A DNA stretch of 64,000 nt from assembly GCA_030447505.1 (NCBI GenBank), contig JAUJOT010000009.1, forward strand, positions 99,233 through 163,232, given 5' to 3'. Positions 3,820 to 16,342 of this stretch are shown piece by piece; within the stretch, counting starts at the first letter, position 1, and each line of letters opens with the position of its first letter. The stretch is from Solirubrobacteraceae bacterium. Its GTDB lineage: Bacteria > Actinomycetota > Thermoleophilia > Solirubrobacterales > Solirubrobacteraceae. The notes under the pieces were generated by a model that saw only the letters and a program-made list of their open reading frames with translations, did no database searches and was not told the origin of the DNA. Both the position numbers and the translations under genes were made by a program.

Positions 3820-4514
3820 TCCTCTACGGGCGCAATGCGGTGCGCGAGGCGCTGCGGGCGCGACGGCGCAGCATCGCGGAGGTCTGGGCGACCGATCGCG
3901 CCGTCGCCCGCGAGCCCTGGCTGCGCGATGCCGGGGCGCGGATCGCGCGCCCCGAGGAGATCGAGCGCCGCAGCGGCTCGCCGGACCATCAAGGCGTCTG
4001 CGCCGACGCCGGCGGCTATCCCTACGTGTCGGCTCGCGAGCTGCTGGCCGTCGACGCGCCGTTCATCGTCGCCCTCGACGAGCTGCAGGACCCCCAGAAC
4101 GTCGGCGCGATCGCGCGCAGCGCCGAGTGCGCGGGCACGACCGGGGTCGTCATCTGCGAGCGCCGCGCCGCGGCCGTCACACCGGCGGTCGCGAAGGCAT
4201 CGGCGGGCGCCGTCGAGCACCTGCGGATCGCTCGCGTGCGCAACATGGCGGACTTCCTCGGCGACGCGAAGCGGTCGGGCGCGTGGTGCTACGGAGCCGA
4301 CGCGGCTGCCACGACCGGCTACGACGAGCCGGACTACAGCGGTGCTGTCGTGCTCGTGATCGGAGCGGAGGGCAGCGGCCTGCGCCCACGCGTCTCGAAG
4401 TCCTGCGATGCGCTTGTTTCGCTGCCGCTGCGCGGGCGCATCGAGTCGCTGAACGCGAGCGCTGCTGCCGCCGTTCTGATGTACGGAATCCTGCAGCGCC
4501 GGCGCGGCGCTTGA
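3816..4514 (+). CDS. rlmB: 23S rRNA 2'-O-ribose methyltransferase, TrmH/SpoU family
   Basis: A 232-residue SPOUT methyltransferase expected to methylate the 2'-OH of a guanosine (E. coli G2251) in the peptidyl-transferase region of 23S rRNA using SAM. The N-terminal 75 residues form the small substrate-binding domain. The trefoil-knot domain has all three SpoU motifs: LDELQDPQNVGAIARSAE, VIGAEGSGL and SLPLRGRIESLNASAAAAVL. The GTG start overlaps the cysS stop (GTGA). The cysS-rlmB pairing is conserved in many Gram-positives. A consensus -35 sequence for the next gene overlaps its stop codon. Confidence 0.9.
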   Translation: MILYGRNAVREALRARRRSIAEVWATDRAVAREPWLRDAGARIARPEEIERRSGSPDHQGVCADAGGYPYVSARELLAVDAPFIVALDELQDPQNVGAIARSAECAGTTGVVICERRAAAVTPAVAKASAGAVEHLRIARVRNMADFLGDAKRSGAWCYGADAAATTGYDEPDYSGAVVLVIGAEGSGLRPRVSKSCDALVSLPLRGRIESLNASAAAAVLMYGILQRRRGA

Positions 4515-4540
4515 CAAGGCGCCATAACGCGGGGTACCGT
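4511..4540 (+). promoter_or_regulatory. sigma-70 type promoter upstream of the SigH-like gene
   Basis: A perfect TTGACA (4511-4516) overlaps the rlmB stop codon and is followed after 18 bases by TACCGT (4535-4540). Transcription would start about 110 bases before the sigma-factor GTG, giving it a long 5' leader (about 4547-4659) independent of cysS-rlmB. The leader shows no recognised riboswitch. Confidence 0.5.
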
Positions 4541-4659
4541 GGGCTGGCGTCAGGCTGAACCTCAGCTTCAGATCGGGACTCGTTATACGCAGTTGGCGCC
4601 CTGGGAGGGGTCCGCCGCTGAGCACATCCGGCTCGTCCTCGGCCGGGAAAGGACTGCTC

Positions 4660-5310
4660 GTGGCAAGGATCTCCCCCAAAGCTCATCCTCAGGTCCAGGT
4701 CGATGACTACTTTCTGATCGCGCTGGCCAAGAGCGGCGATCGCAACGCCTACGAACGCATCGTGCGCCGCTACTACGGATTCGTGCGCGTCAAAGCGTCG
4801 TCGTATTTTCTCGCCGGCGGCGACTCCGACGATCTCGTGCAGGAGGGGCTCGTCGGGCTTTACAAGGCCGTCCGCGACTACCGCTCCGACCGCGAGTCGT
4901 CGTTTCGCAACTTCGCCGAGCTGTGCATCACGCGCCAGATCATCACGGCGGTGAAGACCGCGACGCGCAACAAGCACACGCCGCTGAACCAGTACGTCTC
5001 GTTCTCGGCGACGCCGGCGGGATCCAGCAGCGACGGCGAGCCCACCCTGGAGGACGTGATCCCCGGCTCGGCGGTCCACGACCCGGTCAACCAGGTCATC
5101 TCCTCCGAGGAGCTGCATTCGCTGGTCGGCTGCCTCTCGACGGCGCTCTCGGAGCTCGAGTCGCGCGTGCTGGCGCTCTATCTCGACGGTCGTCCCTACG
5201 AGGAGATCGCCGAACGCCTCGGCTGCGACGCGAAGACGGTCGACAACGCGCTGCAGCGCGTCAAGCGCAAGGTCGGCCTGCATCTCGTGCAGCGCAGCGT
5301 CCTGAACTGA
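4660..5310 (+). CDS. RNA polymerase sigma factor, SigH/Spo0H-like
   Basis: A 216-residue sigma-70 family protein without a full region 1. Region 2 spans about 15-100, with the core-binding and -10 recognition helices (DDLVQEGLVGLYKAVRDY). Region 4 sits at about 160-205 with a helix-turn-helix (YEEIAERLGCDAKTVDNALQRVKRK). In length and region 2 sequence it is closer to Bacillus SigH than to ECF sigma factors. Its place directly after cysS-rlmB matches the Bacillus order cysS-mrnC-rlmB-yacP-sigH, although mrnC and yacP are absent here. The GTG start has an AAAGGA ribosome site eight bases upstream. No adjacent anti-sigma gene is visible. Confidence 0.85.
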   Translation: MARISPKAHPQVQVDDYFLIALAKSGDRNAYERIVRRYYGFVRVKASSYFLAGGDSDDLVQEGLVGLYKAVRDYRSDRESSFRNFAELCITRQIITAVKTATRNKHTPLNQYVSFSATPAGSSSDGEPTLEDVIPGSAVHDPVNQVISSEELHSLVGCLSTALSELESRVLALYLDGRPYEEIAERLGCDAKTVDNALQRVKRKVGLHLVQRSVLN

Positions 5311-5351
5311 GCGGCCGCTTCGTGAACGAGCGGGCCTATAGCATCGGGATC

Positions 5352-5744
5352 GTGAACCCGATCGCCGCATCCACGCTGGGCATCGTCTTGGTCGTCGTCG
5401 CCGTCGTCATCGTCCTGCTCGTCGCCGGCGGCTACGCAGCCGCGACGCGGCGCGCCGAGAAGAGCGAGGGCGCGCTGCAGCGCGAGCTCCAGCAGGCCGA
5501 ACGCGAGCTCGCCGAGGCCCACGCCAACGACAAGGGCTGGGACCCCGAGCTGCTCGCGTCGGCTGCCCGCGCCGCCGCCGTCGAGCGCTTCGGCGACGCA
5601 ACCGTCGGCGACCCCCTGCTCGTGCAGGTCCTCGACCGCCCCGGGACCGACGCCGACCAGGCCGTCTTCCGGGTACAGACCGCCGACGGCGGCGAGCATC
5701 GCATCACGCTCGGCCGTGCCGGCGGCGTCTGGGGCCCGGCGTAG
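5352..5744 (+). CDS. small single-pass membrane protein
   Basis: A 130-residue protein not assigned to a family. Residues about 6-30 form a Val/Ala-rich transmembrane helix, followed by a short charged coiled-coil (RRAEKSEGALQRELQQAERELAEA) and a C-terminal soluble beta-rich tail (FRVQTADGGEHRITLGRAGGVW). The GTG at 5352 was chosen because it places the helix at the N-terminus; an upstream in-frame GTG at 5322 is also possible. It follows the sigma-factor gene by about 40 bases and may share its transcript. Confidence 0.6.
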   Translation: MNPIAASTLGIVLVVVAVVIVLLVAGGYAAATRRAEKSEGALQRELQQAERELAEAHANDKGWDPELLASAARAAAVERFGDATVGDPLLVQVLDRPGTDADQAVFRVQTADGGEHRITLGRAGGVWGPA

Positions 5745-5833
5745 GTTCAATCGTCGTCGGGTAGCGGCCGGCCTTGCGCAGCAGAAGTCGACCAGCACGC
5801 CCCATACAGGTTTTCGGCGACATTCAGAGTGAG

Positions 5834-6385
5834 TTAGCCGGGCGTCACGTTAAGCAGGTCGACCACGAACACAAGCGTCTCGTTCGGACCGATCGAGCCC
5901 TGGCCCGCCTCACCATAGGCGAGGTCCGGCGGGATGATCAACAACCGCCGGCCGCCGACCTTCATGCCCTCGATACCCTCATCCCATCCCGGGATCACAT
6001 TGCCCTGGCCTAGAGTGAAAGTGAACGGCTCGCGACCCCAGGAGGCATCGAACTGCTCGGCGTTGGAGAACAGCGCACCGACGTAGTGCACGACGAGGTT
6101 GTCGCCCGCGTTGGCTGCGGCGCCCTTGCCCTTGACGATGTCCTTCGTGACGAGCTTCGTCGGCGGCTTGCCGGACGGCTCGGGGATCTCCGGCTTGCTC
6201 GACACGTCCGTCGAGATGCCGAGCCTCGTCGCGGCGCCCGTCCCTCGAGCGGGCGTCGTCGCCGTGTCGGTCTGGGCGGGAGTCGCCGGCACCGCGGCGG
6301 GCAGATCCGTCTCGTCCTCGCTGTCGCCGCATGCGCCGACGACGAGCGCCGCCGCGGCCAGCAGCGCGATGCTTCGTGCGCGCAA
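5834..6385 (-). CDS. lipoprotein FKBP-type peptidyl-prolyl isomerase
   Basis: A 183-residue extracytoplasmic FKBP. The N-terminus is a lipoprotein signal with the lipobox VVGAC, then an acidic/Ala-Thr linker (about 20-60) and an FKBP domain (about 75-183) containing VHYVG, FDASWGR, VIPGWDEGIEGMKVGGRR and IPPDLAYG, the usual active-site segments. It probably isomerises X-Pro bonds in exported proteins at the outer face of the membrane. The TTG at 6385 was chosen because it gives a compact signal peptide; an overlapping CTG (6391) is the alternative. It lies three bases after a cytoplasmic paralogue, from which it likely arose by duplication. Confidence 0.8.
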   Translation of the reverse strand: MRARSIALLAAAALVVGACGDSEDETDLPAAVPATPAQTDTATTPARGTGAATRLGISTDVSSKPEIPEPSGKPPTKLVTKDIVKGKGAAANAGDNLVVHYVGALFSNAEQFDASWGREPFTFTLGQGNVIPGWDEGIEGMKVGGRRLLIIPPDLAYGEAGQGSIGPNETLVFVVDLLNVTPG

Positions 6386-6387
6386 CG

Positions 6388-6786
6388 TCAGTACCCGACC
6401 TTCACCAGGTCGACGACGAAGACGAGCGTCTCGTTGGGCTTGATCGGCCCGACGCCGCGGTCTCCGTAGCCGAGCGAGGGCGGGATGATCAGCGTGCGCC
6501 GGCCACCGACCTTCATACCGGTGACGCCCATGTCCCAACCCTTGATGACGCGCCCGTGGTCGAGCGGGAAGTCGAACGCCTGGCCGCGATCCCAGGAGGA
6601 GTCGAACTGTTGGCCCGTCGACCAGGACACGCCGACGTAATGGACATGGACCTGCTTGCCGGGCGTCGCCGCGTCGCCCTCGCCGACGACGATGTCGTCG
6701 GCGATCAGCTCGGTCGGGGGCTCGCCGGTCGGCGCGGGGACCTCGGGCTTGCTGGTGAGGTCGTCGGAGATGTCAAGCTTGGTCAT
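6388..6786 (-). CDS. cytoplasmic FKBP-type peptidyl-prolyl isomerase
   Basis: A 132-residue single-domain FKBP with no signal peptide. It has VHVHYVGVSW, FDSSWDRG, VIKGWDMGVTGMKVGGRR, IIPPSLGYGDRG and a final ETLVFVVDLVKV strand, so the rotamase pocket residues are present. It should catalyse cis-trans proline isomerisation in the cytoplasm. The first 35 residues (SDDLTSKPEVPAPTGEPPTEL) are also present, slightly altered, in the following lipoprotein FKBP, showing that the pair is a tandem duplication in which one copy gained an export signal. Confidence 0.85.
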   Translation of the reverse strand: MTKLDISDDLTSKPEVPAPTGEPPTELIADDIVVGEGDAATPGKQVHVHYVGVSWSTGQQFDSSWDRGQAFDFPLDHGRVIKGWDMGVTGMKVGGRRTLIIPPSLGYGDRGVGPIKPNETLVFVVDLVKVGY

Positions 6787-6823
6787 GAGCCACAGCCTAC
6801 GTACCCACGGCCGTGGCGCGGCG

Positions 6824-9526
6824 TCAGCCTTCGAGCGGGCGGAAGTCGCCGAAGGTCCAGTGCACGTTGTAGCCGAGCGCCGTACCCGCCGGGCTCGCGT
6901 GCATCGCGGGCAGGACGACCGTTCGCATGAGCTCCTCGACGATCCCTGCCCGTAGCTGCGCGTCCTCGATCTCCGGCAGGTACTCCTCCTGATTGGATGG
7001 CACGAGCAGCGTGTCGATCGTCTCCTCGTCGGCGATCTCGTAGGTCTGCGTCGTGACCTCGCCGACGAAGTGGCCCGTCAGCGCGTCGCCGATCTCGGGG
7101 CCGGTATGGGGGCGGGGCAGGATCCGCCGGCCGGCGCGGTCGTCGTCGATCAGCGGCAGCGAGGCGTGCGCGGCGCGTGCGGACGCGGCCGCGATCGCGT
7201 CGCGCTGCAGTTGCGAGTCGGGCATCGCATCGCCGTTCAGCAGCGCCTTCCAGTGCGCGCGCAGCGCGCGGTTCGGGTCGTGGAAGAGGACGGCGTACGG
7301 CCCCGGCAGCCCGAGGTCGGGCGCGTTCCACAAGAGGCGGCCGCCAGGCGCCGTCACGTCCGCGAGGCCCTCGGCCACGCGTCGCACGGCCTTCGGCGGG
7401 ATGAGGTGGAAGACCATGCTCGACATGACGACGTCCATCCGCACGCCACCGGTCACCTCGAGCAGCGGCCGGAAGCGACCGTCGTCGCCGACGAGCGAGT
7501 GACAGCGCGTCCACGAGCAGTCGCGCACGACGTCGTAGCCGTAGGCGAACCAGCTCGACGGGATGTCGGCGAGGTGCAGCTCGAGCGTCACGCCGGCGCG
7601 CTCCAGGCGCTGCTCGAGGCCCGTCTCGCGCGTCGCCTTGAGCAGCTCGATCGCCGCCAGCGCGGTGCCGGTCCCGTAGTCGAGCACGCGCAGCACCGAG
7701 CCGGACGGCAGCTCCTCGAGGCGCTGCTCGAGCACGGCGATCGCCTGCGTGACGAGCAGGCTCGTCGCGGCCGACGACCATAGCCGCGGGTGGCGCAGGT
7801 CGCCGCCCTCGTAGAGCAGCTCGTGCAGCGCGCGGCCGTCGCGCCGGTCCACGCCCGGCCGCGGGCGCCAGCTGTCGTGGCGCGCGACGTCGCCGTCGAA
7901 GCCTGGGATCAGCTCGTGCTCCGCGGCGCCGCCGCCGAGCAGGTGGTTGAGGCTGACGGCGACGAACGGCCGCGTCGTCGGGTAGCGCCGCTCGCCGGTC
8001 GCCGCCTGCCGCAGGCCCGCGCGCCGCAGCGCGGAGATGAACGCGCGCCGCTCGACAGGGTACTGGCGAGACAGCCCGTGGTAGGCGTCGAAGGCGATGC
8101 TGTGCAGCGCGCCCTGGTGGCGCGCGGCGACCTGCGGCGCGACGCAGTGCGCCTCGAGCACGATCAGCCCGTGGCGGGCGACGTGCGGCGCCCAGCGCGC
8201 GAGGTGCGCGGCGAGGTCGGCCTCGACAGCGGCGGGATCGAGCGCATGGCCGGATTCGGCGAGATACGCGCCGCTCGAGAGTCCGGCCGCCGTCTGCGGC
8301 GCGCGTGCGCCGCCGTAGCCGCGGTCGTGGTCGACGAAGGCGTGCACGTGCAGGCCGTCGTCGATCGCCAGGGCGTGGGCGGCAAGGTCGTCGCGCAGCG
8401 CGTCCGGATCGGAGACGTCGCCGAGCAGCACGAGCGCCGGAGCGCCTGCCTCGGCGAGCGTGCGTCGCGCACGCTGCACGGCGGCTTGACTGTAATCCGC
8501 GCCGACCAGCAGCAGCGGGTGCTCGTCGAGGTGGCGCCCCCGCAACGTGCGGTCGCTCACGAGCGCGTGGATGCGCGCGAGCCAGCTGCCGTCACCGCAG
8601 CCCGTGTCGAGTACGAAGCGCGGCTGCTCGGAGAGCGGCTCGCGGTCGAAGATCTGGGCGATCGCCCTGTCGGCGTCACCGAAGTAGCGGCCGTGCGCAG
8701 CCGTGCTGGCACGGATGTTCAGCTCGCGCTGGACGTGCCACTCGCGTCCCTCGGCGGGACCGCTGCGGGCGCCGCTGATCGCGCCGCCGTACAGCTCGGG
8801 CAGGCGGCCGAACATCGGCAGGTAGGAGCCGACGAGCCCGAGGTGCACGACGAAGTCCAGCGCGATGACGCCGTCCTCCGTCCAGGCGCCGTCGTCGCCG
8901 AGCCAGCCGAGCGCGCGCAGCAGTCGCGCGACGAGCTCGCCCGCGTCGCCGCCCGGCAGCGCCGGGCCGTCGGCGCCGTCGAGGTCCCCGCTGGCGTCGA
9001 GCCACAGCAGCGCCGGAGAGGCGAGCGCTCCGTCGAGGTGCGCGACGACGTCGTCGCGCAGCGCCGCGTCGAGGTCGTCGAGCTCCCAGCGCGCCTCGGC
9101 GCCCTCGACGAGCTCGGCGAACAGCGCCAGGCGCTGGCCATCCCAGGGCCGCTCCCAGGCGTCGGGCTCGTTGTCGAGGAACATCGCGAGGTAGCTGCCC
9201 AGCTCCAGGTAGCTGTCGTGATGGGCGGCGACGGCGCGCCCGGCAGCCGTCCAGGCGATCGTCGTCGCGTCGGGCTCGAGCGCGGGGCCCGCTTCGATCC
9301 AGCCCGCCTGGGCGAGCGTACGCAGGCCGACGCGGAGGTGCGCGAAGCCCGTGTCGGTCAAGGCGGGGCAGAGCCGGTCGAGCGGTTCGGCGCGCGTCAG
9401 CGACGGCGCGAGCAGGTCGATCGCGTTCATCCCGCGCAGCGTCGCCGCGAGCACCATGCCGTCCTGGAACAGGAACGCCAACCGCCGCAGGGCGTCCCTG
9501 CCGATGCCGCGATCTGTGAGCCGCAC
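6824..9526 (-). CDS. two-domain SAM methyltransferase resembling AprA-type enzymes
   Basis: A 900-residue protein with two Rossmann methyltransferase domains. The first has motif I VLDTGCGDG at 305-313 and a following acidic strand (VGADYSQ, 341-347); the second has VLDYGTG at 614-620 and LHLADIP. An N-terminal region (about 40-105) looks like a winged helix, and EAHCVAP...FDAYHGLSRQYPVE (about 458-492) resembles the first methyltransferase domain of AprA-like polyketide-loading enzymes. That family assignment is from memory of motifs, not a search. There is no polyketide synthase or carrier protein nearby, so it is an orphan. The GTG at 9526 starts the frame; the tRNA-Thr gene begins 78 bases upstream on the other strand. 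Confidence 0.6.
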   Translation of the reverse strand: MRLTDRGIGRDALRRLAFLFQDGMVLAATLRGMNAIDLLAPSLTRAEPLDRLCPALTDTGFAHLRVGLRTLAQAGWIEAGPALEPDATTIAWTAAGRAVAAHHDSYLELGSYLAMFLDNEPDAWERPWDGQRLALFAELVEGAEARWELDDLDAALRDDVVAHLDGALASPALLWLDASGDLDGADGPALPGGDAGELVARLLRALGWLGDDGAWTEDGVIALDFVVHLGLVGSYLPMFGRLPELYGGAISGARSGPAEGREWHVQRELNIRASTAAHGRYFGDADRAIAQIFDREPLSEQPRFVLDTGCGDGSWLARIHALVSDRTLRGRHLDEHPLLLVGADYSQAAVQRARRTLAEAGAPALVLLGDVSDPDALRDDLAAHALAIDDGLHVHAFVDHDRGYGGARAPQTAAGLSSGAYLAESGHALDPAAVEADLAAHLARWAPHVARHGLIVLEAHCVAPQVAARHQGALHSIAFDAYHGLSRQYPVERRAFISALRRAGLRQAATGERRYPTTRPFVAVSLNHLLGGGAAEHELIPGFDGDVARHDSWRPRPGVDRRDGRALHELLYEGGDLRHPRLWSSAATSLLVTQAIAVLEQRLEELPSGSVLRVLDYGTGTALAAIELLKATRETGLEQRLERAGVTLELHLADIPSSWFAYGYDVVRDCSWTRCHSLVGDDGRFRPLLEVTGGVRMDVVMSSMVFHLIPPKAVRRVAEGLADVTAPGGRLLWNAPDLGLPGPYAVLFHDPNRALRAHWKALLNGDAMPDSQLQRDAIAAASARAAHASLPLIDDDRAGRRILPRPHTGPEIGDALTGHFVGEVTTQTYEIADEETIDTLLVPSNQEEYLPEIEDAQLRAGIVEELMRTVVLPAMHASPAGTALGYNVHWTFGDFRPLEG

Positions 9527-11122: not shown

Positions 11123-11788
11123 TCAGGGCGGCGCGTCGCCGGCCGGGCCGAACACCGCCTGCGTCTGCGGGCCGACGTCCAGCGGCCTGACGACGACCTC
11201 GTCGCCGGCGGACCCCTCCTCGCTTCGCGGCGGCTCGACGACGTCGAGCCCCTCGAGCATCGTGAAGAACGCGCGCCCGTAGGGCGTGTGTCGCACACGC
11301 GCGCGCACGGCGTCCCAGTCGACCTGCTCGCGTAGCGCGCGCGCCATCTTCAGCAGCCCTGCGTAGTCGAGGTAATGCTCGTTGAGGGTCTGCAGGCGCA
11401 GGGCGAACATGTCCTCCAGGCCGAGGACGTTCATCGTCATCGACGTCACCGCCAGCTCCTCGCCGCGAGCGATCTGCTCGTCGGTGACCTCGCCCTCGAC
11501 GGTCTGGAAGATGACGTCGACGAGCACGTCGCCGTCCCATGCCTTGAGCAGCCACTCCTCGGGCGGGCGCTCGGGCGTCATTCCCGCGTCGACGAGCAGC
11601 TCGAGCACGCGCTCGGCGTCGGTCGGGCGCACCATGAGGTCGAGGTCGTTGGTCACCTCGGGGCCGCCGCGCGCCCAGGCCGCGAGGCTGCCGCCGACGA
11701 GAAACGGGATCTGCGCCTCGCGCAGCAGCGCCACGGCCTTGCGCAGCGTCGCCAGGATCGGCCCGAAGCGCTCTTCGTCGTCACGCAT
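11123..11788 (-). CDS. nucleotidyltransferase-fold protein
   Basis: A 221-residue protein with the minimal nucleotidyltransferase signature: a glycine-serine pair in FLVGGSLAAWARGG (about 30-43) followed by the metal-binding NDLDLMV (about 47-53). It resembles the AbiEii-like/DUF6036 group, whose members transfer nucleotides to small molecules, tRNA or protein. The second half (about 120-175) is helical and contains LEDMFALRLQTLNEHYLDYAGLLKM. A possible partner antitoxin of the AbiEi type is not adjacent, so a toxin role is not supported. The gene is transcribed away from the phosphoesterase. Confidence 0.6.
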   Translation of the reverse strand: MRDDEERFGPILATLRKAVALLREAQIPFLVGGSLAAWARGGPEVTNDLDLMVRPTDAERVLELLVDAGMTPERPPEEWLLKAWDGDVLVDVIFQTVEGEVTDEQIARGEELAVTSMTMNVLGLEDMFALRLQTLNEHYLDYAGLLKMARALREQVDWDAVRARVRHTPYGRAFFTMLEGLDVVEPPRSEEGSAGDEVVVRPLDVGPQTQAVFGPAGDAPP

Positions 11789-11834: not shown

Positions 11835-12602
11835 ATGTCGCTGGCCGACCAGTCGCAGCGCCCAGCCCGGATCGCCGCCGTCGGCGACCTGCACTGCCGC
11901 GAGTCGCAGCGCGATGAGATCGCCGCCGCCTTCGCGGCGATCGCGGCGGAGGTCGACGTCATCCTGCTCGCCGGCGACCTGACGACGCACGGCGAGCCCG
12001 AGCAGGCGCAGATCCTCGCCGACGCCTGCCGGCCGCTCGACACGCCGGTGCTGACCGTGCTCGGCAACCACGACTGGCACGCCAACCGCGCCGACGAGGT
12101 CGTCGACGTGCTGCGCGAGGCCGCGATCGTCGTGCTCGACCGCGACCACGCGATCCTCCCTGTCGGCGCCATCGAGCTCGGCGTCGTCGGGCTGAAGGGC
12201 TTCGTCGGCGGCTTTGACGGCCATCGGATCCCAGACTTCGGCGAGCCGCTGCTGCGCGCGCTGTACGACGACATGTCCACCGACGTCGAGGCGCTCGACG
12301 CCGGCCTGCGCGAGATCGCCGCCTGTCCGCTGCGGATCGTGCTGCTGCACTACGCGCCCGTTACGGCCACGCTCGAGGGCGAGCCACGCGAGATCTGGGC
12401 CTTTCTCGGCAGCGACCGGCTCGCGGCGCCGATCACGGAGCACCGCCCGCACGTCGTGCTGCACGGGCACGCGCACGCGGGCAGCTTCGCCGGCGCGATC
12501 GACGACGTGCCCGTCTACAACGTCTCGGCGCCGGTCATCGGGCGCGACTTCTGCGTCTTCGACCTCAGCGGCGCCGGCGCAACGACCGCCGCCGTGCACT
12601 AG
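11835..12602 (+). CDS. calcineurin-like metallophosphoesterase
   Basis: A 255-residue metal-dependent phosphoesterase with all family motifs in order: VGDLHC (D-x-H), LAGDLTTHG, LGNHDWH, then a lone histidine (LLHYAP) and HGHAHAG near the C-terminus. It hydrolyses a phosphomono- or diester; the substrate cannot be told from sequence. The ATG at 11835 was chosen; an in-frame GTG at 11811 would add eight residues. Its TAG stop lies inside the left copy of a 22-bp inverted repeat bounding the accessory segment that follows. Confidence 0.8.
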   Translation: MSLADQSQRPARIAAVGDLHCRESQRDEIAAAFAAIAAEVDVILLAGDLTTHGEPEQAQILADACRPLDTPVLTVLGNHDWHANRADEVVDVLREAAIVVLDRDHAILPVGAIELGVVGLKGFVGGFDGHRIPDFGEPLLRALYDDMSTDVEALDAGLREIAACPLRIVLLHYAPVTATLEGEPREIWAFLGSDRLAAPITEHRPHVVLHGHAHAGSFAGAIDDVPVYNVSAPVIGRDFCVFDLSGAGATTAAVH

Positions 12603-12618
12603 GAGGGTTTGGCGAAAC
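12597..12618 (+). repeat. 22-bp inverted repeat, left copy
   Basis: Perfect inverted match to 15744-15765 (core AGGAGGGTTTGGCGAAAC). It begins with the last codons of the phosphoesterase gene. The pair encloses 3.1 kb carrying a tRNA, a transposase and small phage-like genes, so the repeat may mark element ends or a dispersed intergenic repeat. Confidence 0.75.
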
Positions 12619-12698
12619 TCGTTCGCCCAGTAGCGGCGGGGCTTTCCTTGGCCGGTCGGAACACGCCTACCTCCCGAATCGCTGTGGTCTACCCCAAA

Positions 12699-12727
12699 CG
12701 AAAGGCCCACCGAAGGCGGGCCTTTCG
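12699..12727. terminator. intrinsic terminator hairpin
   Basis: A perfect ten-pair stem CGAAAGGCCC/GGGCCTTTCG with a nine-base loop. It stands between the phosphoesterase (plus) and the tRNA-Cys-like gene (minus) and could terminate both. Confidence 0.7.
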
Positions 12728-12818
12728 CGAACATTCTGCCGCCGGTTTCGACGGCTAGGCCAGGCGCGTCGAATGCGCCATGGGTCCCTTGCATCGGGAA
12801 GAATAACAAATTCGGATG

Positions 12819-12891
12819 AGGCGCGGGCCGGATTCGAACCGGCGTACGGATCATTGCAAGGGACCCGACCTAGCCTCTCGGTCACCGCGCC
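12819..12891 (-). tRNA. tRNA-Cys-like gene with abnormal anticodon arm
   Basis: A 73-nt tRNA-like gene: acceptor GGCGCGG/CCGCGCC with discriminator T (typical of tRNA-Cys), D-arm GACC-GAGAGGCTA-GGTC like actinobacterial tRNA-Cys, and perfect T-arm GCCGG-TTCGAAT-CCGGC. The anticodon arm is odd. The stem GGGTC/GATCC encloses nine bases (CCTTGCAAT) instead of seven; without the extra CC it would be a normal TTGCAAT loop with anticodon GCA. Read strictly by position the anticodon would be TGC (Ala) with a mismatched stem. It may be a damaged or pseudo-tRNA, or be mis-sequenced. Confidence 0.6.
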
Positions 12892-12931
12892 CTGCGCAAC
12901 GCGGTGAGTCTAGCACGCTTCTGCGGCACCT

Positions 12932-12952
12932 CGTGATAGCCGGGCTATCACG
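12932..12952. repeat. 21-bp palindrome upstream of winged-helix gene
   Basis: CGTGATAGCC and GGCTATCACG are perfect inverted arms around one central G. Between the tRNA-like gene and the winged-helix gene it could be an operator or recombinase site; no further evidence is visible. Confidence 0.5.
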
Positions 12953-12960
12953 TCCCAGCC

Positions 12961-12999
12961 CCTACATGCCTACATCCCTACATCCCTACATCCCTATAC
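12961..12999 (+). repeat. tandem octamer array (CCTACATC)n
   Basis: Four consecutive copies of CCTACATN followed by a partial copy, directly upstream of the winged-helix gene promoter. The array is short and could be an iteron-like protein-binding site or simple slippage. Confidence 0.7.
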
Positions 13000-13034
13000 A
13001 CACACCCCGCGTGGGTGTCGGGTGAGGCGTGTGC

Positions 13035-13040
13035 TACTGT
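13035..13040 (+). promoter_or_regulatory. -10 element of winged-helix gene
   Basis: TACTGT lies seven bases before the ATG at 13048, consistent with a leaderless transcript starting at that codon. Confidence 0.4.
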
Positions 13041-13047
13041 GATGCCC

Positions 13048-13551
13048 ATGCCATCCTCGACATTCTCTGTCGTCGCCCTTCTTGCCGAGCGCCCCGAGGC
13101 TGACCTGCGAAAGATGCAGGCAGGACTCGAAGCCGAGCGGCTGCGCCTTGAACGAGACCTCGCCAGGATCGAGCTGGAGTCAGAGCAGATCGCTGAGGCG
13201 CTCGCGCGCCAGTCGCGAGCCACCGCCAAGCCGAGGACGCGGCCAAGCCCGACGCGGCCAGGTGCCACTCAGAAGCGCATCCTGGACGCAGTAGCCCGCC
13301 TCCCTCAGCCGGTAAGCCCCGCTGAGATCATTGCGGAGATGGAGTCCGGAGGATCTCCGGCGGGCAACAAGGGCACGATCCACAACGCAATTGCCCGCCT
13401 CGTCAAGGTCGGGAAACTGAACAAGCTCGACGTAGGCCAGTACCAGCTTGCGTCCCGGAACGGCTCCTCAGGGGAGTCGCACACGGGACCTACCGAGAAT
13501 GAGCCAACCGAGCCGCTGTTAACGGCCACGGGGGCTCAGGAGGCGAGTTAG
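13048..13551 (+). CDS. winged-helix domain protein of accessory segment
   Basis: A 167-residue protein with an N-terminal coiled coil (about 15-55, rich in Glu/Arg/Leu) and a winged-helix domain (about 70-140: KRILDAVARLPQPVSPAEII...GTIHNAIARLVKVGKLNKL), followed by a disordered polar tail. This architecture fits a DNA-binding regulator or small accessory protein of a mobile element. The ATG at 13048 suits the leaderless promoter; ATG 13042 is two codons upstream. The upstream palindrome and octamer repeats are plausible binding sites. Function unknown. Confidence 0.6.
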   Translation: MPSSTFSVVALLAERPEADLRKMQAGLEAERLRLERDLARIELESEQIAEALARQSRATAKPRTRPSPTRPGATQKRILDAVARLPQPVSPAEIIAEMESGGSPAGNKGTIHNAIARLVKVGKLNKLDVGQYQLASRNGSSGESHTGPTENEPTEPLLTATGAQEAS

Positions 13552-13589
13552 GGAGTCCTAGGCTCCAAACCTCGTATCGCGTGGCACAG

Positions 13590-13626
13590 CGGGTCGGCTC
13601 TACAGGAGTCGGCCCGTTTCGCTTTT
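13590..13626 (+). terminator. intrinsic terminator after winged-helix gene
   Basis: An eleven-pair stem (CGGGTCGGCTC/GAGTCGGCCCG with two G-T pairs), loop TACAG, then TTTCGCTTTT. Confidence 0.7.
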
Positions 13627-13627
13627 C

Positions 13628-13645
13628 GGGAGTCTACAGACTCCC
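13628..13645. repeat. short perfect hairpin
   Basis: GGGAGTCT-AC-AGACTCCC directly after the terminator T-tract; it may act as a second terminator for either strand. Confidence 0.45.
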
Positions 13646-13794
13646 CCGCCTGTCTTCTAGATTCTGCCCGTTTTCCCTGCTAGCAAAAGGGTTTTTCCGT
13701 CCGATGCGACCTGTAGGCTTGCCTTCGATCTCCAATAAACGACCCCCGCGCTGCGCTAACAGCCGGGGGTCTGGACCACGAAGGATTGAGCTAC

Positions 13795-14929
13795 GTGGAC
13801 TTGCAGAAGGTAGCACCGCGCTCGGCGGCTTTCGAGCTTGCAGGACTTCTCGACTCCCCGGAGATCGCGAACCTCATCGCAGACCTTGAGGCGACGCGCT
13901 GGACGGGTCGCCCCGGCTATCCGATCCGTTGCATGGTCGGTATGGCCCTCGCCAAGTCCATGTACGCGATCCCGACGTGGACGCGCACCGTGCGGCTTGT
14001 CGCTGAGCACGACGCGCTGCAAGCCGCGCTCGGCTGCGTTGGCGACACGCCGAGCGAGTGGGCGTGCTACCGCTTCACGGCCAAGCTGCGCGTCTACAAG
14101 CCGCTGCTGGACTCCTGCATCTCGGACGTGCTCGACCGGCTGCGCGAGGCGAACCCCGGCATGGGCGAGAGCATCGCCATCGACGGGTCCGACCTTCCCG
14201 CGTACGCCAACGGTCAGCGACACGTGTCCAAGAACGGTCGCGAGCGTGCGGCGAGCGAGTACAGCGATCCCGACGCATCGTGGGGGCATCGCTCCGCAGT
14301 GTCGACACGCAAGGGCGGCGGGGTACTACGGCTACAAGGTCCATGCGGCCGTCGACACGCTGACCGGGCTTCCGATGGCTTGGACCGTGGAGACGGCCAA
14401 GGATGCCGAGACCACGTTCGCGCTCGGGCTGCTCGACGCCGTGCGTGAGCGTGGGTTCGCGGTCGCGAACGCGATCATGGACAAGGGCTATGACAACGGC
14501 CCGGTTCACGACGGCTGCAACGCGCGTGGCGTGTGCCCTGTCACGCCGCTGCGCGAGACTCCTGGCGTCAAGCGCGGCGACCACAAGCCGCGATGCTGCG
14601 AGCACGGCGAGTGGACGTTCGCCGGAACCGACTACAAGCGGCAGGCAACCAAGTGGCGCTGCCCGACCGGCGAGTGCCAGCCGAAGTCCACATGGGTCAA
14701 GGCCGACCGGATGCACCCGCTGATCCCGCGCCACACGGAACGGTCCAAGGCGCTGTACAGCAGCCGTGGCGCCGTTGAGCGCGAGTTCGGCCGACTCAAG
14801 CACGAATGGGCGATGCTGCCGCTCCGCGTGCGAGGCATCGAGCGCGTCCGGCTGCACGCCGATCTGACGATCCTCGCGAAGCTCGCCTGCGCGCTCACGA
14901 ACGCGCGCGCCGCGCCACGCGCGGCATAA
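13795..14929 (+). pseudogene. IS4/IS5-type DDE transposase with frameshift
   Basis: A transposase of about 377 residues if one base is removed. The N-terminal part (about 1-110) is a DUF772-like domain; AIDGSDLPAYANG gives the first catalytic Asp, AIMDKGYDN the second, and GAVEREFGRLKHEWAM the Glu. At 14320-14323 a GGGG run breaks the frame: the first frame ends in VLRLQG while the +1 frame continues YYGYKVHAAVDTLTG. This may be a real inactivating insertion, a programmed +1 shift or a sequencing error. The GTG at 13795 has GAAGGA nine bases upstream. A GACCCCCG/CGGGGGTC hairpin (13741-13772) precedes the gene, but no terminal inverted repeats were found. Confidence 0.7.
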
Positions 14930-14936
14930 TCCGGCT

Positions 14937-15113
14937 TTAGGTGCGGGCGCGCCGAGCAGGCGCGGCAGCCGGGGCACCCGGATCGCGCTCAAGGCGATCC
15001 CACTCGCGAAGCGCCTCGTCAACTTCGCGCTTTAGCTCCCTATCCTCTCGGATGGCCTGCTCGCGCCGTTCCTGCGGCGACTGCCCGTTGCGGTCGGCGC
15101 TGCGATCGCCCAT
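14937..15113 (-). CDS. small charged hypothetical protein
   Basis: A 58-residue highly charged helical protein (MGDRSADRNGQSPQERREQA at the start, then alternating Glu/Arg heptads and an Ala/Pro-rich tail). The ATG has AGGGAGC eight bases upstream, a better ribosome site than most genes here. It lies convergent to the broken transposase and downstream of the membrane protein at 15176-15541 in a minus-strand pair typical of phage or element cargo. No family recognised. Confidence 0.5.
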   Translation of the reverse strand: MGDRSADRNGQSPQERREQAIREDRELKREVDEALREWDRLERDPGAPAAAPARRART

Positions 15114-15175
15114 GCGTTGCTCCCTCTCTGGTGGCCCACACCCGTTTTTCGCGGCGAAATATTGTACCCCTTCGG

Positions 15176-15541
15176 CTACCCCGAATTGCCGTTCTTGAAG
15201 ACCTCGCGCTCAAGATCCAACAGCCGTTGATCGGTAGCGCGCGTATGGGCATCAACGCGCCGCTCAAGCGCGCCTACCGCCTTCCGTGCGGCGCCGAGCC
15301 GCAGACGCGATCCGGCAACCTCGGCCTCTTCAACATCGTCGCCCCGCCACAGCCCTCGCGCCGTCGCTAACACGACCATAAGCACGAAGGCCACGGCCCC
15401 AGCTTGCGTCAGCGTCGAGAAGAACGATGCGTCTTGAAGCAGGCGCACCGCACCGAAGACGATACCCACGGCCAGCGCGAACACGACGATCGGCTTGTGG
15501 AGCGGTACGCCGCTCAGTCGTCGCAACCAATTTCGAATCAT
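15176..15541 (-). CDS. small membrane protein, phage-like
   Basis: A 121-residue protein with two predicted transmembrane helices (about 15-35 and 45-63) followed by a cytoplasmic coiled-coil-like C-terminus (RLGAARKAVGALERRVDAHTR and onward) ending GNSG. The layout resembles phage or element-encoded membrane proteins such as holin-like or lysis accessory factors, but nothing specific identifies it. The ATG at 15541 is preceded by AGGAAGG, a strong ribosome site. It sits just inside the right copy of the 22-bp inverted repeat. Confidence 0.5.
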   Translation of the reverse strand: MIRNWLRRLSGVPLHKPIVVFALAVGIVFGAVRLLQDASFFSTLTQAGAVAFVLMVVLATARGLWRGDDVEEAEVAGSRLRLGAARKAVGALERRVDAHTRATDQRLLDLEREVFKNGNSG

Positions 15542-15743
15542 GACCGCGGACCTTCCTAATTCCGTCCGGACGGTGCGACACGATGCCGATGTCCACGCCA
15601 TCTGACCCACGACCGGATGCTTTGCATGAGGCTCGCTGGTTCGCTCCCAGCGGGCCTCGTGCATTCTCGGTCGCGGGTCGGACAACACGGCGGTCGCGCG
15701 AGACTCTAGCCTGAGGCGCGAGTGGCCCAGAGTTTCGCCAATC

Positions 15744-15765
15744 GTTTCGCCAAACCCTCCTAGTG
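15744..15765 (-). repeat. 22-bp inverted repeat, right copy
   Basis: Exact inverted copy of 12597-12618. The GTTTCGCC core is present a second time one step further in (15731-15739, GTTTCGCC of AGTTTCGCCAATC), and the outer edge runs into a perfect TAGTGGG-CGA-CCCACTA palindrome (15761-15777). Confidence 0.75.
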
Positions 15766-15796: not shown

Positions 15797-16342
15797 TCAG
15801 CCCGTGCTGTCGCCGGGCGCGCTGCCGACGCGCTCGAGCCGGCCGTGGCCGTTGCTCGAGAAGACGTCCTCGTACTTCGGGATGCCGGGATCGTCCGGCG
15901 CGTTCAACCGCCGCTCGAGCTCGCCCATGACGATCCCGAAGACGAGATGGCGCCATGTCGCCTGCGCGAAGGCGCGCCCGCTCGACGCCAGCCGGGGGAG
16001 ATCGTCGCGCGCGGGATGCACGCGGTCGACGGCGATCGTCAGCGGCCAGGTCGCCAGGTGCTCGATCAGCGCGACGATCGGCCCGCGGCTCCACGACGGC
16101 AGCGGCATCCGCGGCGCGAGGTTCGAATACACGGCGCCCATCAGCGCGCCGTTGACGAGGTGCATCGCCGCCCCCACCACCGGCCACGCAGGGCCGCGCG
16201 TGACCGCCTTGCCGAGCAGCTCGCTGTCGTCGTGGTCGAGCCCGAAGACCGGCTTGTCGAGCGGCTGCTGAGCAAGCCAGACGCCTGCGGCGACCGCGCC
16301 GGCGAAGGCTCCGCGAACGCTCTTGGCGAGATCGATCACCAT
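15797..16342 (-). CDS. hypothetical membrane protein
   Basis: A 181-residue protein with several hydrophobic, glycine/alanine-rich segments (about 8-25, 50-75, 88-108 and 135-155), so probably multi-pass, and a hydrophilic C-terminus. Conserved-looking motifs are GLDHDDSELLGK and WRHLVFGIVMGELERRLN. Not assigned to a family with confidence. It is divergent from the PlsC-GpsA fusion with only about 40 bases between the starts, so the two may share a regulatory region. Confidence 0.55.
   Translation of the reverse strand: MVIDLAKSVRGAFAGAVAAGVWLAQQPLDKPVFGLDHDDSELLGKAVTRGPAWPVVGAAMHLVNGALMGAVYSNLAPRMPLPSWSRGPIVALIEHLATWPLTIAVDRVHPARDDLPRLASSGRAFAQATWRHLVFGIVMGELERRLNAPDDPGIPKYEDVFSSNGHGRLERVGSAPGDSTG

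What the first reader, a model, noticed from the sequence alone, without database searches (positions are those of the whole stretch)
12597..15765. 3.1-kb accessory segment bounded by a perfect 22-bp inverted repeat
The repeat at 12597-12618 is found exactly inverted at 15744-15765. Between them are an aberrant tRNA-Cys, a 21-bp palindrome, an octamer array, a winged-helix gene with terminator, a broken transposase and two small minus-strand genes, one membrane-bound. Base composition is lower in GC around 13550-13790. This looks like a discrete mobile or decaying element whose ends are marked by the repeat, yet it encodes no recombinase other than the broken transposase.
Basis: partly seen in the sequence, partly recalled or inferred. 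Interest (0 to 1): 0.58.

Follow-up and report, generated by a model that had tools for sequence, protein, structure and literature searches.

The report
Cargo-carrying jumping gene, now broken
The segment is a damaged copy of a previously unnamed family of small jumping genes in soil actinobacteria that carry extra genes; this copy also carries an odd transfer-RNA gene whose own trailing sequence can pair with it.

Summary
The 22-bp inverted repeat marks the ends of a real transposable element (about 12603-15759) flanked by a duplicated CTAG. A same-genus genome (G003) has the empty site. A second, 80% similar copy with the same ends lies elsewhere in this genome. I identified 27 both-ended elements with a transposase relative in Solirubrobacterales, other Thermoleophilia and viral contigs. 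Targets are YTAR, mostly CTAG, as for IS5. Cargo differs between copies (PIN, XRE, winged-helix proteins, DNA methylase, tRNA-like genes). This makes it a passenger-carrying insertion sequence (tIS-like), inactive here by a frameshift. The 'aberrant tRNA-Cys' is the unusual part. In both copies of this genome the tRNA is followed by a trailer antisense to its own D and anticodon arms. Compensatory changes support both the cloverleaf and the competing helix. Five of 27 elements carry a tRNA-like gene, and in none is the nearest host tRNA the isotype named by the anticodon. A function for the tRNA is not shown.

The parts
12599..12602 (.). left target-site copy CTAG; its TAG is the stop codon of the phosphoesterase gene
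   Evidence: sequence; empty site in G003 ends ...CATTAGGCG
12603..15759 (+). transposable element proper, about 3157 bp, L to R
   Evidence: ends shared with related elements; 4-mer at both ends identical in 24 of 26; empty site
12597..12618 (+). 22-bp repeat: 2 flank bases (CA) + CTAG + left inverted-repeat end
12611..12627 (.). left subterminal hairpin GGCGAAACTCGTTCGCC
   Evidence: same in L004
12699..12727 (-). terminator-like hairpin downstream of the tRNA
   Evidence: same in L004
12753..12761 (-). trailer segment antisense to the tRNA D arm
   Evidence: folds; covariation
12763..12779 (-). hairpin inserted between the two antisense segments
   Evidence: a hairpin also in L004
12782..12793 (-). 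trailer segment antisense to the anticodon arm (12 bp perfect)
   Evidence: 0 of 300 shuffles
12818..12891 (-). tRNA-like gene: Cys-like body, anticodon TGC in a 7-nt loop or GCA in a 9-nt loop
12932..12952 (.). 21-bp palindrome, possible operator between divergent tRNA and winged-helix genes
   Evidence: operator role inferred
12960..12999 (.). octamer direct-repeat array
   Evidence: no counterpart seen by eye in the L004 copy
13042..13551 (+). passenger: coiled-coil + winged-helix-like protein, homologous to that of L004
   Evidence: 44% identity over 165 aa
13786..14929 (+). transposase (DUF772 + DDE_Tnp_1), broken by a frameshift near 14310-14325
14937..15113 (-). passenger ORF, 58 aa, unassigned
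15732..15751 (-). right subterminal direct repeat (GTTTCGCC twice, 12 bp apart)
   Evidence: R-type end in relatives
15744..15765 (-). 22-bp repeat at the right end
15760..15763 (.). right target-site copy CTAG

Best explanation
The segment is one inactive copy of a family of passenger-carrying insertion sequences. When active, a DDE transposase binds two different ends, an L end (inverted repeat + hairpin) and an R end (inverted repeat + subterminal direct repeat). It inserts the unit, cargo included, at a YTAR tetramer (usually CTAG) that becomes duplicated. Here it landed on the CTAG that holds the stop codon of a phosphoesterase gene, leaving that stop intact. Shown: ends, duplicated CTAG, empty site, second copy, family, frameshifted transposase, variable cargo. 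Inferred from homology to IS5/IS1182 transposases: the chemistry, binding of the ends, and present immobility unless an intact transposase acts in trans.
For: Empty site in G003 of the same genus: the phosphoesterase gene runs straight into the neighbouring membrane-protein gene, with no element. Second copy in the same genome, 3162 bp against 3163 bp, 80-82% identical at the left end and over the transposase region, 94% over the last 34 bp, with different cargo. 27 elements with both ends and a transposase relative (26, one more). Identical tetramers at both ends in 24 of 26, including one non-palindromic CTAA...CTAA. Two places where ends meet back to back at one CTAG, and seven 166-169 bp copies with only the ends. 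Transposase domains DUF772 and DDE_Tnp_1 above Pfam cutoffs. Target preference matches IS5 as described in PMC5493358 (CTAG 15, CTAA 3, TTAG 3 of 24; passages read).
Against: No transposition was observed; all is comparative. Only one of the three relatives with the phosphoesterase gene has the informative empty site; G001 and G002 have other DNA next to it. Both transposase copies of this genome are frameshifted, which could also be an assembly error. In 2 of 26 elements and 3 of 7 end-only copies the tetramers differ, so duplication of all four bases is not exact everywhere.
Confidence: 0.94

Rival explanations
1. A tRNA-associated island inserted by a site-specific recombinase, the 22-mer being its attachment site.
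For: A tRNA-like gene sits near one end.
Against: Attachment sites are direct repeats; these are inverted. I saw no tyrosine or serine recombinase in the ORF list or the Pfam results for the ORFs tested. 22 of 27 family elements have no tRNA.
Confidence: 0.02
2. A non-autonomous unit mobilised only by another element; the inner transposase belongs to a separate IS that landed inside it.
For: Cargo differs while transposase and ends stay; end-only copies of 166-169 bp exist.
Against: In the elements examined the transposase lies between the same L and R ends in the same orientation, and some are intact, with the transposase starting about 205 bp from the L end (L020).
Confidence: 0.04
3. For the tRNA part only: the tRNA is a decaying pseudogene, and the antisense trailer is a leftover inverted duplication of the tRNA.
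For: Lowest tRNA scores in the genome; mismatches in the anticodon stems; only two examples, in one genome.
Against: Between the two copies 7 of 20 cloverleaf pairs and 6 of 19 antisense pairs changed on both sides and kept pairing; one cloverleaf pair is broken. Decay would not keep both. A hairpin between the antisense segments occurs in both.
Confidence: 0.35

Closest known systems
IS5 family (DDE, YTAR target)
   Same: DDE_Tnp_1 transposase; YTAR target with CTAG most common (PMC5493358 passages)
   Different: All IS5 NCBIfam models score below their cutoffs (best IS5_4, 69.7 against 140); carries passengers
IS1182 family
   Same: Best NCBIfam match (155 bits, E 3e-45); DUF772 + DDE_Tnp_1
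   Different: Below the 270-bit cutoff; 386 aa against a 488-position model. PMC5678879 (passages) describes the member IS1272 as lacking target duplications
tIS, insertion sequences with passenger genes
   Same: Single transposase unit whose ends enclose variable extra genes (term in PMC7986276, passages)
   Different: Cargo includes tRNA-like genes; I saw none reported in the listings and abstracts my searches returned
Dual-identity tRNAs (tRNA-ProX) and allo-tRNAs
   Same: tRNA body of one identity with the anticodon of another (PMC11415595 section 17; PMC7609411 passages)
   Different: Bodies here are not Pro, no synthetase partner seen, ordinary 7-bp acceptor and 5-bp T stems; carried by a transposon; self-antisense trailer

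Membership tests
Transposable element with inverted-repeat ends | paired inverted ends shared by independent copies | tested here: met
Transposable element with inverted-repeat ends | empty site in a relative | tested here: met
   G003, (1 informative relative of 3 with the gene)
Transposable element with inverted-repeat ends | target-site duplication | tested here: met
   CTAG at both ends; 24 of 26 elements identical, one of them non-palindromic CTAA
IS1182 family | NCBIfam equivalog model above cutoff | tested here: not met
   P0003 155 bits against 270
IS5 family | NCBIfam IS5 models above cutoff | tested here: not met
   best 69.7 against 140
IS5 family | YTAR target | tested here: met
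   PMC5493358 passages
IS5 family | membership in an ISfinder group | not testable with these tools
   ISfinder not on hand
tIS | passenger genes inside a single IS unit | tested here: met
Functional tRNA | cloverleaf with compensatory changes | tested here: met
   7 of 20 pairs changed on both sides, 1 broken, two sequences only
Functional tRNA | expressed and aminoacylated | not testable with these tools
   needs RNA work
tRNA-ProX | Pro body and ProRSx partner | tested here: not met
   body nearest Cys; no synthetase above cutoff among the element ORFs scanned
Allo-tRNA | 8/4 or 9/3 acceptor/T stems | tested here: not met
   7/5 stems

The most novel reading that the evidence does not exclude
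These transposons carry rewired tRNAs as cargo: tRNA bodies of one identity with the anticodon of another. In the two copies of this genome the tRNA is held silent by its own trailer, which can fold over the D and anticodon arms. Removing the trailer would release a mistranslating tRNA, making it a conditional tRNA switch, possibly controlled by the divergent winged-helix protein.
Probability: 0.15. Interest if true: 0.78.

Novelty: new variant of a known kind. Interest (0 to 1): 0.45.

Why it matters
It turns an unexplained repeat into a defined transposon family with known ends, target and cargo, which can be annotated across Thermoleophilia and tested. If the tRNA reading holds, it would be a mobile source of tRNAs that break the code, with a built-in off state. 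Both structures compete for the same bases, so one RNA-structure probing experiment would test it directly.

Tried and rejected
Frameshift-suppressor idea: I asked whether the odd tRNAs could read through the transposase frameshifts. The frameshifts lie at different places in the two copies and the possible anticodons do not match them; intact transposases occur in tRNA-bearing and tRNA-less elements alike (reasoned; no separate computation).

Stop-codon targeting as a general rule: open frames ending at the element's TAG are not clearly more frequent than in the other frames (19 of 48 ends with at least 100 codons, against 16 and 12). Half of all CTAG sites in this GC-rich window look similar (15 of 30). 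Single cases are clear (phosphoesterase here; PEPCK at L021). I do not claim a rule.

A second member of the tRNA-plus-trailer RNA elsewhere: model R1 over 46 of my loci gave only the two known copies as strong hits (195.6 and 169.1 bits; next 21.8, E 0.043). Over 232 genomes the other 31 listed matches score at most 37.6 bits. The 11 I opened are ordinary tRNAs (9 Cys, 2 Arg); 20 were not opened. Nearest left-end relative G007 is a decayed remnant in which ARAGORN found no tRNA.

Antisense control: of 18 tRNAs, W and L004 reach 0 of 300 shuffles for run length. The next are L109 (4), L021 Cys (5) and L004 Val (13). On duplex energy W (2), L004 (0), L004 Val (1) and L109 (2) are similar, so energy alone does not single them out.

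Plasmid search: no DNA match. Transposase matches: 17 records, 16 of them under 60% identity.

Dropped before counting: loci with only one recognisable end, and L028 (both ends, only a transposase remnant). L039, L033, L034, L053, L115, L116, L123 and L025 duplicate counted elements.
Full report
The repeat. The 22-mer is exact at both stated places and is the only exact 22-mer inverted repeat with arms more than 50 bp apart in the window. In the whole genome, with up to three mismatches, there is one further copy, on another contig. So it is not a dispersed intergenic repeat.

A second element in the same genome. The third copy marks the left end of a second element (L004, 6708-9873, reversed). 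It is 3162 bp long against 3163 bp here. The left 138 bp are 80% identical, the transposase region 82% over 1479 bp, and the right end 94% over 34 bp, while the cargo near the right end differs. The ends are therefore longer than 22 bp and are not alike: L carries a small hairpin, R a subterminal direct repeat.

The family. Searching with the end sequence found matches in 9 of 151 relatives and 23 of 232 genomes of the order. Searching with the transposase found 19 of 232, and 51 loci in the species-genome collection, the distant ones in other phyla without these ends. I define 27 elements with both ends and a transposase relative: 26, plus L201. They are 1.6 to 4.8 kb long. Identical tetramers flank 24 of 26; 23 are CTAG and one is CTAA, which is not a palindrome and so shows a direct duplication. 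Two differ. Seven 166-169 bp copies have only ends; four have CTAG at both sides and three differ. In two loci two ends meet at one CTAG (L031, L043). Named records are Solirubrobacteraceae, Solirubrobacterales, Thermoleophilaceae and Gaiellaceae, plus bins labelled Acidimicrobiaceae and Frankiales. G025, placed in the window's family, has a contig of the same length and element as the record titled Solirubrobacteraceae.

The empty site. Of seven genomes of the genus (own included), four have the phosphoesterase. In G003 its stop codon is followed directly by the end of the gene found at 15797 here, with 85% identity across the join and no element. G001 and G002 have different DNA there. The CTAG in the window contains the phosphoesterase stop, which is kept.

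The enzyme. The two transposase frames at 13786-14929 match DUF772 and DDE_Tnp_1. Four intact relatives score best with the IS1182 model, but below its cutoff, and below those of IS5. The target spectrum agrees with the list for IS5 in PMC5493358 (passages). I therefore call it an unnamed group between IS5 and IS1182, not a member of either. Both copies in this genome are frameshifted, at different places; intact copies exist in L020, L021, L022 and L029. No transposition has been shown.

The cargo. Passenger ORFs are shared piecemeal between elements: a PIN protein with a partner (L022, L054), small XRE regulators (L020, L030, L031, L043), a DNA methylase fused to a restriction-like domain (L029, L047), small unassigned proteins (L021, L022, L048, L122), and the coiled-coil winged-helix-like protein of this element and L004. 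This fits the term tIS used in PMC7986276 (passages).

The tRNA. Five of 27 elements hold a tRNA-like gene by ARAGORN: W, L004, L029, L031 and a poor one in L043. At the host density 0.88 are expected in 78 kb of the 26 elements; the chance of five is 0.002, or 0.012 for four if W and L004 count once. The anticodons read Ala, Ala, Asn, Gly and unassigned; the nearest tRNAs of this genome are Cys, Ser, Asp, Leu and Arg. The assignments are clear for W and fair for L031, weak for L004 and L029, and three of the five come from other hosts. For W the isolated tRNA folds with a 9-nt loop in which GCA (Cys) could also be the anticodon, so a changed identity is not certain even there. The genome has 43 other tRNAs, including an ordinary tRNA-Cys, and the two element tRNAs score lowest.

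The trailer. Downstream of the tRNA in W and L004 lie two segments antisense to the anticodon arm and the D arm, separated by a hairpin. In W a terminator-like hairpin follows, and the same one lies in the L004 left end. Predicted folds of the whole transcript prefer the long helix over the cloverleaf (-99.3 kcal/mol, z -5.4; -110.9, z -4.2). Between the two copies 7 of 20 cloverleaf pairs and 6 of 19 antisense pairs changed on both sides and stayed paired; one cloverleaf pair in L004 is broken. RNAalifold on its own finds 10 doubly changed pairs of 33. With only two sequences, aligned by MAFFT, this is suggestive rather than proof. No third example was found in 232 genomes, so the feature may be confined to this lineage of elements.

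Literature. Searches gave no report, in what was listed, of tRNA-like cargo in insertion sequences or of this family; search 94, the most specific, returned no paper. Dual-identity tRNAs are known from Streptomyces (PMC11415595, section 17 read), and an allo-tRNA pseudogene overlapping a transposon-related ORF is mentioned in PMC7609411 (passage). The library holds open-licence papers only, so absence there is weak evidence.

Verdict. The segment is a broken, passenger-carrying insertion sequence of an unnamed group. That part is secure and of moderate interest. The self-antisense tRNA is the open question.

Noticed in passing
L087 1501-1666, L088 1501-1667, L107 1501-1666, L109 1501-1666, L110 1501-1667, L043 7471-7636, L084 1353-1521: Short 166-169 bp copies with only the ends: MITE-like derivatives of the family.
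   Followed up: partly
L031 7543-7544; L043 7471-7472: Two family ends meet back to back at one CTAG, as if one element served as target for another.
   Followed up: partly
L021 2944-3015: A normal tRNA-Cys lies about 70 bp outside the left end of an element that itself carries no tRNA.
   Followed up: no
L022 329-1589 of the element (L022 about 8252-9512): PIN-domain protein with an upstream partner, shared with L054: possibly a toxin-antitoxin pair carried as cargo.
   Followed up: partly
L029 124-4386: Element carrying a DNA methylase with a restriction-like C-terminal domain, also in L047.
   Followed up: partly
L004 5140-5922 and 11435-13441: The second copy sits in a region with other mobile genes: integrase-type ORFs (one tested matches rve) and an ATP-binding ORF that looks IstB-like (recalled label).
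   Followed up: no
L114 about 4100-7150: Decayed relative of the element in G007 with the closest left end and transposase fragments interrupted by other genes.
   Followed up: partly
window 11123-11788: Nucleotidyltransferase-like gene (NTP_transf_5 above cutoff) next to the phosphoesterase.
   Followed up: no
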